A stretch of 64,000 bases of DNA, taken from assembly GCA_947626195.1 (NCBI GenBank), contig CANQRF010000004.1, positions 62,001 to 126,000 of the forward strand. The letters are read 5' to 3'. This document shows, piece by piece, positions 42,672 to 47,840 of the stretch. Position 1 is the first letter of the stretch. Each line of letters starts with the position of its first letter. The notes below the pieces were generated by a model. The model saw nothing but the letters and a program-made list of their open reading frames with translations, searched no databases and was not told the origin of the DNA. The stretch is from an uncultured Eggerthellaceae bacterium. Its GTDB lineage: Bacteria; Actinomycetota; Coriobacteriia; Coriobacteriales; Eggerthellaceae. A program made the position numbers and the translations under genes.

Positions 42672-42680
42672 ATCGTTTTA

Positions 42681-42810
42681 GGAGGCGCCGGGCGCGCAGT
42701 CGCTCGGCAGTCCTGAGCTCGCGATTTTCCGAATTTTGAAATTGTAATTCGGAAAATCCCTCGTGCGGAACTCGCTTTGTGCGCATCCCGACGCCCCCTC
42801 GCCCGAGCGG
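42681..42810. repeat. palindromic intergenic element, copy A
   Basis: Core is a perfect 13-bp inverted repeat (GATTTTCCGAATT at 42723-42735, AATTCGGAAAATC at 42746-42758) with a 10-base AT loop. It is flanked by GC-rich ends: GCGCGCAGTCGCTCGGCA (42693-42710) recurs at 47160-47176, and CCTCGCCCGAGCG (42797-42809) recurs at 47543-47555. Outer bases GGCGCCGGGCGCGC and GCGCATCCCGACGCC are imperfect inverted partners. It lies between two convergent genes. Confidence 0.7.
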
Positions 42811-46089: not shown

Positions 46090-47133
46090 ATGTGGAACAA
46101 AGCTATGCCGGAGCATCCCGTCGTCGCGGTTGCGGGAGCGACGGGCGCGGTAGGACGCGAATTTCTGCAGGTGCTGCACGACCTCGATTTTCCCGCTTCT
46201 GAGGTGCGGGCCTTGGCGTCGAGCCGCTCGGCCGGCAAAGAGCTCCCGTTCTTGGGCTGCGGCGAAGTGGCGCCGGGGAACCTCGTGGTCGAGGAGATGA
46301 CCCCTGCCTCGTTCGGGGGCGTGGACATCGCGCTCTTCTCGGCGGGCGCCTCAGTATCGCGCAAGATGAGGGAGGCCGTTGTGGCTGCCGGTGCGGTGAT
46401 GATCGACAATTCGAGCGCGTTTCGGATGGAAGATGACGTGCCGCTCGTCGTTCCCGAGGTGAACCCGCAAGACGTCGCGTGGCATTCGGGCGTCATCGCG
46501 AACCCGAACTGCTCGACGATCCAGATGGTCGTCGCCTTGAAGCCCCTGTACGATCTCTCGCCCATCAAGCGCGTGGTGGTTTCCACCTATCAGGCGGCAA
46601 GCGGCGCCGGCGCGCCGGCGATGGCCGAGCTCTACGATCAGACACGCGCCTTCTTGGAGGGCACGCCTGAGGAGGAGCTTGTCATCGACGCCTTCCAGCA
46701 TCGGATCGCCTTCAACGTGATTCCGCATATCGACGTCTTCATGGACGACGATTCCACGAAGGAAGAGTGGAAGATGGTCGTTGAGACGAAGAAGATCATG
46801 GGCGACGACAACATCAAGGTGGCGGCAACCTGCGTGCGCGTGCCCGTGCTGCGCTGCCATGGAGAGGCGATCAATGTGGAATTCGCTGATGAAGTGAGCG
46901 TCGCCGATGCGCGCCGTGCGCTTGAGGCAGCGCCGGGCGTGTGCGTGATGGATGACATCAAGAACAACGTCTATCCGATGCCGGGCATCCTCGCCGGCAC
47001 GAACGACACCTATGTCGGGCGCCTGCGCAAGGACCCGACGGTCGACCATGGGTTGGCGATGTGGGTGGTGGCGGATCAAATCCGCAAAGGCGCCGCCCTG
47101 AACGCCGTCCAGATTGCCCAATTGTTGCTTTAG
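46090..47133 (+). CDS. asd: aspartate-semialdehyde dehydrogenase
   Basis: Reduces aspartyl phosphate to the semialdehyde; 347 residues. NADP-binding VAVAGATGAVGREFLQVL, active-site Cys in NPNCSTIQMVVAL, substrate Arg/His region VAATCVRVPVLRCHGEAINV, and VADQIRKGAALNAVQIAQLL. lysC-asd is a standard operon. ATG 46090 follows AAAGGG. Confidence 0.97.
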   Translation: MWNKAMPEHPVVAVAGATGAVGREFLQVLHDLDFPASEVRALASSRSAGKELPFLGCGEVAPGNLVVEEMTPASFGGVDIALFSAGASVSRKMREAVVAAGAVMIDNSSAFRMEDDVPLVVPEVNPQDVAWHSGVIANPNCSTIQMVVALKPLYDLSPIKRVVVSTYQAASGAGAPAMAELYDQTRAFLEGTPEEELVIDAFQHRIAFNVIPHIDVFMDDDSTKEEWKMVVETKKIMGDDNIKVAATCVRVPVLRCHGEAINVEFADEVSVADARRALEAAPGVCVMDDIKNNVYPMPGILAGTNDTYVGRLRKDPTVDHGLAMWVVADQIRKGAALNAVQIAQLLL

Positions 47134-47177
47134 ATTGATGAAGCTTTCAAGAGGCGTCGGGCGCGCAGTCGCTCGGC

Positions 47178-47310
47178 ATAATGCCCCCATCGGTCGGAGG
47201 GGCGCTCGGGCTTAAGGCGGCGCTTAACGGAAGCGATTATGCATGTAAATTATCGCATAATCGCTTCCTACGCCGGATGCGCCCTCGACCCCTCCATTCC
47301 CTCGGGGGCA
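47178..47310. repeat. nested inverted repeat (133 bp)
   Basis: Outer arms AATGCCCCC (47178-47186) and GGGGGCATT (47302-47310) are perfect. Intermediate GGAGGGGCG-like and CCCTCGACCCCTCC-like stretches pair imperfectly. The inner stem GGAAGCGATTATGC (47227-47240) with GCATAATCGCTTCC (47253-47266) is perfect over 14 bp with a 12-base loop. Confidence 0.85.
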
Positions 47311-47477
47311 TTGAACCTCGCATAAATCTTTTTTTGTCTTACAGGTTCGCCAGTGAGAAAGCGAGGGCGTTTCCGGTGCTTCAGATTCCCCCGCTGCACG
47401 GCTGAGTGTGCTTCGCACACGAAGGTAAGTGCACAAGGGGGAAGATGAAGTGCCCGAAACGCCCGCAGCGTCAGCTC

Positions 47478-47505
47478 GTTCCGCTGTTTGTCAAAACAGC
47501 GGAAC
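47478..47505. repeat. perfect 12-bp hairpin
   Basis: GTTCCGCTGTTT (47478-47489) and AAACAGCGGAAC (47494-47505) with loop gtca. Followed by AAAAAA rather than T, so on the plus strand it is no terminator. Confidence 0.85.
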
Positions 47506-47681
47506 TAAAAAACGTCCGCGAGGCCCTTGAACTCGAACGCTCCCTCGCCCGAGCGAGATGAGGCATAATGATGAGCGGAACCAAAATTTCGGAGGGGTAA
47601 CACTCTGGTACTGAGGCGACCGGAGGGCACCTGCTTTGTTATAGTGAGCGAACTAAGTTAAAACAACTTGAGGAGGCAACA

Positions 47682-47840
47682 ATGGATAAATGGGTCTGCA
47701 CCATCTGCGGTTATGTTTACGATCCCGAAAAGGGCGATCCTGATGGCGGCATCGAGCCGGGCACGCCGTTTGAGGACATTCCGGATGATTGGGTCTGCCC
47801 GATCTGCGGAGCGGCGAAGAGCGCCTTTGAGAAGGAATAA
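47682..47840 (+). CDS. rub: rubredoxin
   Basis: Small iron electron carrier, 52 residues: begins [20 protein letters not shown] and ends [18 protein letters not shown]. Both C-x2-C iron-binding pairs (CTIC, CPIC) are intact, with the family's aromatic core residues. GAGGAGG lies upstream of ATG 47682. Typical of anaerobes, where it serves oxygen and superoxide reductases. It stands just after the structured gap; tlyA follows 57 bp later. Confidence 0.96.

What the first reader, a model, noticed from the sequence alone, without database searches (positions are those of the whole stretch)
47152..47556. Expanded copy B with a 133-bp nested palindrome and a second hairpin
It shares both end sequences with copy A but has different, larger inner palindromes: 14-bp inner stem, 9-bp outer stem, and a separate perfect 12-bp stem. 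Shared ends around different palindromic cores suggest a modular element whose centre is exchanged or evolves fast, or a family of structured RNAs.
Basis: seen in the sequence. Interest (0 to 1): 0.6.

Follow-up and report, generated by a model that had tools for sequence, protein, structure and literature searches.

The report
Mosaic repeat carrying stop-codon hairpin element
The stretch is a patchwork of several scattered non-coding repeats, and one of them turns out to be a previously uncatalogued hairpin element that occurs in dozens of copies per genome across a class of gut bacteria, usually planted within a few bases after the stop codons of genes.

Summary
Copy B (47145-47562) is intergenic, between asd and a rubredoxin gene, in an Eggerthellaceae genome. 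It shares both ends with copy A and holds the palindromes described.

It is a mosaic of dispersed repeats: left end, nested-palindrome module P2, a 178-bp two-hairpin module (M2) and right end. Each recurs elsewhere in the genome in other combinations. The sister species has only a 27-bp hairpin at this spot. At another locus the two species carry different cores.

M2 is the surprise. A covariance model finds it in 47 of 60 Eggerthellaceae genomes, up to at least 51 copies each, and in two other Coriobacteriia families. Rfam has no match. Covariation is strong. In 117 of 182 copies its small hairpin begins within 15 nt (mostly 0-6) after the stop codon of a long reading frame, against 4.4% of random positions. 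Some copies sit after the same gene in different genera and are more conserved (0.88-0.93) than fourfold sites of the adjacent gene (0.54-0.66), implying selection. The window's copy is inverted and displaced, probably an insertion product.

Most likely: a mobile-origin, REP-like 3'-end/intercistronic structure. The way it acts is inferred, not shown.

The parts
46090..47133 (+). asd, aspartate-semialdehyde dehydrogenase (upstream gene)
   Evidence: Pfam PF01118 and PF02774; ORF
47145..47178 (+). LE: left-end module, shared with copy A (42676-42709)
   Evidence: 27/28 match to copy A; 8 exact copies of its 17-mer in the genome
47179..47330 (+). P2: nested-palindrome module (9-bp outer stem 47180-47188/47304-47312; 14-bp inner stem 47229-47242/47255-47268)
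   Evidence: 88% copy at G000:C5:12926-13087; three inner-stem variants GGAAGCGATTATGC, GGAAGCAATTATGC, GGAATCAATTATGC, each perfectly self-complementary
47331..47508 (-). M2: two-hairpin module, member of the Coriobacteriia-wide family; the end that normally abuts a stop codon is at 47505
   Evidence: 77-92% copies in own genome; CM match 47356-47505 minus, 166.5 bits
47478..47505 (-).
47365..47464 (-). H2: long imperfect hairpin of M2, bounded by conserved CGCTGCG and CTCGCT motifs; better folded as the + strand
47511..47562 (+). RE: right-end module, right half of the M3/RE repeat; its last 19 bp or so are shared with copy A
   Evidence: 88-98% copies in own genome
47575..47581 (+). GCGGAAC, right arm of an older H1-type hairpin still seen directly after asd in the sister species
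   Evidence: alignment with G001 L070
47682..47840 (+). rubredoxin gene (downstream)
   Evidence: Pfam PF00301
42676..42809 (+). copy A: LE + core P1 + short right end

Best explanation
Copy B is a composite of dispersed, non-coding palindromic repeats that accumulated between asd and the rubredoxin gene by insertion and recombination: LE, P2, M2 (inverted) and RE (shown by comparison of copies and of the sister species). M2 belongs to a class-wide, multi-copy structured family. A typical copy starts 0-6 nt after a stop codon with a 12-bp hairpin (H1), followed by a CGCTGCG-bounded long hairpin (H2), and often fills the whole gap up to the next gene's ribosome-binding site (shown). The family both spreads (copy number, presence/absence, nesting) and is retained by selection at some gene ends (indicated by conservation above fourfold sites across genera). 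Inferred: it works like REP/BIME elements, as a structured 3'-end or intercistronic segment that affects termination of translation, ribosome release, or decay and processing of the mRNA of the gene it abuts. The window's own copy, turned round and buried in a composite, probably does not do this for asd.
For: Modules recur independently. In the sister species the site has only a 27-bp H1-like hairpin right after asd. Other loci show presence/absence or core replacement. M2 family: 32 of 43 pairs compensated in the seed alignment; in 87 further copies 93.6% of cells paired versus 71.3% shuffled and at most 42.2% when slid, with 737 double-sided changes versus 221 (this alignment was fitted to the model). 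Found in 47/60 Eggerthellaceae genomes and 44/149 sampled class genomes. 117/182 copies abut a stop codon versus 4.4% of random positions. Same gene in different genera. M2 identity 0.88-0.93 versus fourfold-site identity 0.54-0.66 in 8 cross-genus pairs. The tightest same-strand neighbours start about 15 nt beyond the M2 tail (examples).
Against: No transcription or function data. H2 folds better on the strand antisense to the abutting gene (A.C 40 vs G.U 17 events in sense, p 0.003), which is not expected if the sense mRNA structure alone is selected. 65 of 182 copies do not meet the stop-codon test. Most orthologous-position pairs in different genera are only at background identity (0.6-0.7), and rpoD has M2 in only 3 of 30 loci examined. 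The mobilising enzyme and target-site duplication are not identified. Gene conversion could imitate selection.
Confidence: 0.68

Rival explanations
1. M2 and its companions are purely parasitic miniature elements (MITE/REPIN-like). The stop-codon position reflects only where insertion is tolerated or targeted, with no host function.
For: High copy number, nested insertion (M2 in composites, M4 inside M2), presence/absence between sister species, absence from 13 of 60 family genomes.
Against: Copies at the same gene end in different genera are more conserved than fourfold sites. The 1-4 nt spacing is too narrow for tolerated insertion alone. No terminal repeats or consistent target duplication were found, and copy number does not track the Y1 transposase.
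Confidence: 0.25
2. M2 is transcribed from the other strand as an independent small RNA or antisense RNA, with H2 as its body and H1 at its 3' end near the abutting gene's stop codon.
For: The antisense strand folds better in 180/182 copies. The conserved tandem site reads C.A/A.C in sense and hence G.U/U.G on the antisense strand; the 5'-arm GCA with 3'-arm CAC combination occurs in 90/163 copies.
Against: Shuffled controls also favour the antisense strand, though less (-5.7 vs -15.9 kcal/mol). No promoter recognised on that strand at M2. Dozens of copies per genome is unusual for a trans-acting RNA.
Confidence: 0.2
3. The elements are ordinary intrinsic terminators of the upstream genes.
For: They sit where other genera carry simple terminator-like hairpins right after the stop, as at rpoD.
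Against: No U-tract follows H1 or H2; 0 terminator-like sites in the region. 76 of 182 copies are followed by a same-strand reading frame, many within 50 nt. The long conserved H2 is unnecessary for termination.
Confidence: 0.1
4. The palindromes are chance or a protein-coding region.
For: None beyond the high G+C content.
Against: Fold z-scores -8.8 and -10.3; homologous copies with covariation; the ORFs there (74 and 70 aa) have no Pfam match.
Confidence: 0.01

Closest known systems
REP / BIME elements of enterobacteria
   Same: Dispersed palindromic repeats in gene ends and operon gaps. In E. coli those fewer than 16 nt from a stop codon down-regulate translation by stalling ribosomes (PMC12306157, citing Liang et al. 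2015).
   Different: M2 is about 150-175 nt with two hairpins of fixed spacing and near-invariant CGCTGCG/CTCGCT motifs, covers a bacterial class, and is stop-abutting in 64% of copies tested (about 11% for E. coli REPs in that paper). No link with a REP-type transposase.
BOX / RUP / SPRITE repeats of pneumococcus
   Same: Modular, structured, intergenic repeats that have proliferated in the genome (PMC3049150).
   Different: Unrelated modules. These repeats are almost absent outside a few streptococci and judged parasitic, whereas M2 spans several families and shows signs of retention.
ERIC/IRU elements (from general knowledge)
   Same: Imperfect palindromes of about 127 bp in transcribed intergenic regions; internal insertions are known, comparable to M4 inside M2.
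   Different: Different host group and sequence; M2 has a separate stop-proximal hairpin.
MITEs / REPINs
   Same: Small, non-autonomous, many copies, presence/absence between close relatives.
   Different: No terminal inverted repeats or constant target duplication found for M2; no partner transposase identified.

Membership tests
REP/REPIN (RAYT-mobilised) | co-occurrence with a REP-associated Y1 transposase | tested here: not met
   M2 copy number with vs without a homologue of the G000 Y1 protein: median 5.5 vs 8, p 0.98; only this one Y1 lineage was tested
REP/REPIN (RAYT-mobilised) | same sequence ends as the resident transposase gene | tested here: not met
   L111 shares no sequence with the modules
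REP-like stop-proximal hairpin | hairpin fewer than 16 nt downstream of a stop codon | tested here: met
   117/182 copies, random positions 4.4%; the window copy itself fails this
REP-like stop-proximal hairpin | lowers translation of the upstream gene | not testable with these tools
   needs a bench test
MITE | terminal inverted repeats plus target-site duplication | tested here: inconclusive
   No constant duplication in sister-species comparisons; a 6-bp TGATGA direct repeat flanks the whole of copy B (47136-47141, 47569-47574) and could be chance
Intrinsic terminator | G+C-rich stem followed by a U-tract | tested here: not met
   0 sites in 47100-47700; no U-tract in the A2 consensus
Any Rfam family | match at gathering score | tested here: not met
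   No match in the window; only chance-level matches at lax threshold; none over M2 in 16 further loci
Structured RNA class | covariation beyond controls | tested here: met
Structured RNA class | transcription | not testable with these tools
   no RNA-seq available
BOX element | boxA-(boxB)n-boxC sequence modules | not tested
   sequences not compared; only the modular architecture is similar

The most novel reading that the evidence does not exclude
M2 is a new, class-wide cis-acting structured element that sits at stop codons in Coriobacteriia. It is maintained by selection at particular gene ends (for example after lysC in eight genera), and acts at translation termination or between genes of an operon, with the opposite-strand fold of H2 as a second functional constraint.
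Probability: 0.42. Interest if true: 0.78.

Novelty: new variant of a known kind. Interest (0 to 1): 0.62.

Why it matters
Dispersed palindromes in bacteria are usually regarded as parasites of one species or genus. Here one family spans a class, keeps a fixed distance to stop codons and is conserved above neutral sites at some genes. That makes the old question of whether such repeats are domesticated testable by deleting single copies. It is also uncatalogued in Rfam, so gene ends in these gut bacteria are probably annotated without it.

Tried and rejected
1. Y1 (IS200-like/RAYT) transposase of the genome (L111) as mobiliser: no shared sequence, no correlation across 60 genomes.
2. Intrinsic terminator: no U-tract.
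3. Known RNA: nothing in Rfam, including permissive search.
4. Protein-coding: no Pfam match for the 74- and 70-aa ORFs.
5. Hammerhead-like CUGA...GAA in the H2 apex: considered and dropped, the core is incomplete and not conserved.
6. Literature: no paper found on such repeats in Eggerthella or Collinsella; a microbiome-wide structured-RNA survey mentions neither stop codons nor Eggerthella in its main text (its supplements were not searchable).
8. A first pattern for the P2 variants was wrong and found nothing; corrected.

Full report
WHERE IT IS. The region lies between asd (46090-47133) and a rubredoxin gene (47682-47840), both on the + strand. The genome is a 1.83-Mb assembly.

OBSERVATION. 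The folds are far beyond shuffled controls. The largest hairpin, 47365-47464, was not mentioned.

A MOSAIC. A search of the whole genome gives 59 matches that fall into blocks. A module map shows LE (47145-47178), P2 (47179-47330), M2 (47331-47508) and RE (47511-47562) in other combinations: LE-P1 (copy A and others), M3-RE, M2-M3-RE, LE-P1-M2. Two M2 copies carry a further 84-bp hairpin (M4) in the apical loop. In P2 the 14-bp inner stem has three variants, each perfectly complementary. One LE-P1 copy (L038) has a different inner hairpin inside the same ends.

SISTER SPECIES. At the window's own locus G001 has only GTTCCGCCGTCTTGACTAACGCGGAAC directly after asd, followed by the same CAAAATTTCGGAGGGG; the window keeps only the right arm GCGGAAC (47575-47581) of such a hairpin. 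The simplest reading is that the composite was inserted into an older M2 remnant behind asd, but deletion in G001 is not excluded. At the L029 locus G000 has LE-P1 and G001 has P2 + M2-tail + RE. At L005 and L025 the element is present only in G000. At L012 the M2 is shared, but the G000 copy has M4 and a right arm of another subtype, so it is a chimera. Insertion, core replacement and recombination between copies are therefore all seen.

THE M2 FAMILY. Homologues exist in many genera of the family at 70-77% identity. Aligned in the orientation opposite to the window (minus strand of L001 and so on), the core is 145-149 nt in every seed without M4: H1 (12 bp), linker ending in CGCTGCG, H2, CTCGCT. 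32 of 43 pairs show double-sided changes. A covariance model finds copies in 47 of 60 Eggerthellaceae genomes, up to 51 (the number scored was capped), and in 44 of 149 genomes sampled across the class, including two other families. In 87 additional copies 93.6% of cells are paired (71.3% shuffled; at most 42.2% when slid) (alignment fitted to the model, so this leans towards it).

POSITION. Of 182 distinct copies, 117 have H1 starting within -2 to 15 nt of the stop of a reading frame of at least 100 codons; 34 do so at the other end, and random positions in the same loci give 4.4%. Using frames of 60 codons or more, the distances peak at 1, 3 and 4 nt. Reading frames were called mechanically, not annotated. 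76 copies have a same-strand frame downstream and 61 a convergent one. In the tightest cases M2 fills the gap between stop codon and the next gene's ribosome-binding site. The element recurs after the same gene in different genera: lysC in G024, G021, G027, G007, G006, G018, G069 and G065; rpoD in G000, G001, G068, G139, G202 and G199; a gene ending ...ITYDNWVL in seven genomes. At rpoD many other genera carry a simple hairpin close behind the stop, so M2 takes the place of an ordinary 3'-end hairpin.

SELECTION. In 8 cross-genus pairs at the same gene end, M2 identity is 0.88-0.93 while fourfold-degenerate sites of the adjacent gene are 0.54-0.66 identical. Other orthologous positions are at background identity (about 0.65), and within one genus the H2 type can differ behind the same H1 (L265 vs L273). 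So both retention and replacement occur. Gene conversion or transfer is a possible alternative for the similar pairs.

STRAND. In H2, A.C exceeds G.U on the gene-sense strand (40 vs 17 genus-level events, p 0.003), while H1 is neutral (24 G.U vs 18 A.C). A conserved tandem C.A/A.C would be G.U/U.G on the other strand. RNA folding favours the antisense strand in 180/182 copies by 15.9 kcal/mol on average (shuffled control 5.7). So H2 may act as a folded antisense strand (RNA or single-stranded DNA), which the simple REP-like model does not explain.

MECHANISM. Shown: mosaic, family, structure, position, retention at some loci. Inferred: a REP-like effect on the mRNA of the abutting gene. Literature support for the analogy: REPs fewer than 16 nt from a stop codon stall ribosomes in E. 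coli (PMC12306157). BOX repeats of pneumococcus show the modular, proliferating kind but were judged parasitic (PMC3049150). The window's copy lies inverted inside a composite and does not abut a stop codon, so no effect on asd is claimed.

NOVELTY. The kind (dispersed palindromic repeat) is known. The class-wide span, fixed spacing to the stop codon and cross-genus retention are unusual, and the family has no Rfam entry.

Noticed in passing
L111 1105-1887 (on G000:C1): Single Y1_Tnp (IS200-like) gene of about 260 aa flanked by inverted copies of TGTGACAAAGGGACACCCCTAATGTCAC; homologues in 24 of 60 family genomes.
   Followed up: partly
L012 1501-1774 and L010 1501-1754: 84-bp hairpin module (M4) inserted at the same point of the M2 apical loop in two copies; absent from the sister-species orthologue of L012, whose right arm is also of another subtype.
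   Followed up: partly
L007 around 1300-1500: A tRNA-like gene followed about 130 bp on by a second copy of its 3' end (TCCTCTCAGGGGCGCCA), like a small element integrated at a tRNA, next to a truncated M2.
   Followed up: no
L072 and L328 (next to asd and behind rpoD in other genera): A different intergenic repeat with GGATCCTTCGACTCGC...GCTCAGGATGAC or its complement; in L328 it lies directly after the rpoD stop codon.
   Followed up: no
G001 L124 and L125: Two similar genes on different contigs, both followed immediately after the stop codon by an M3 repeat.
   Followed up: no
L089 697-846 and 887-1037: Two M2 copies in opposite orientation 40 bp apart, a doublet reminiscent of REPIN/BIME pairs.
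   Followed up: no
   Followed up: no
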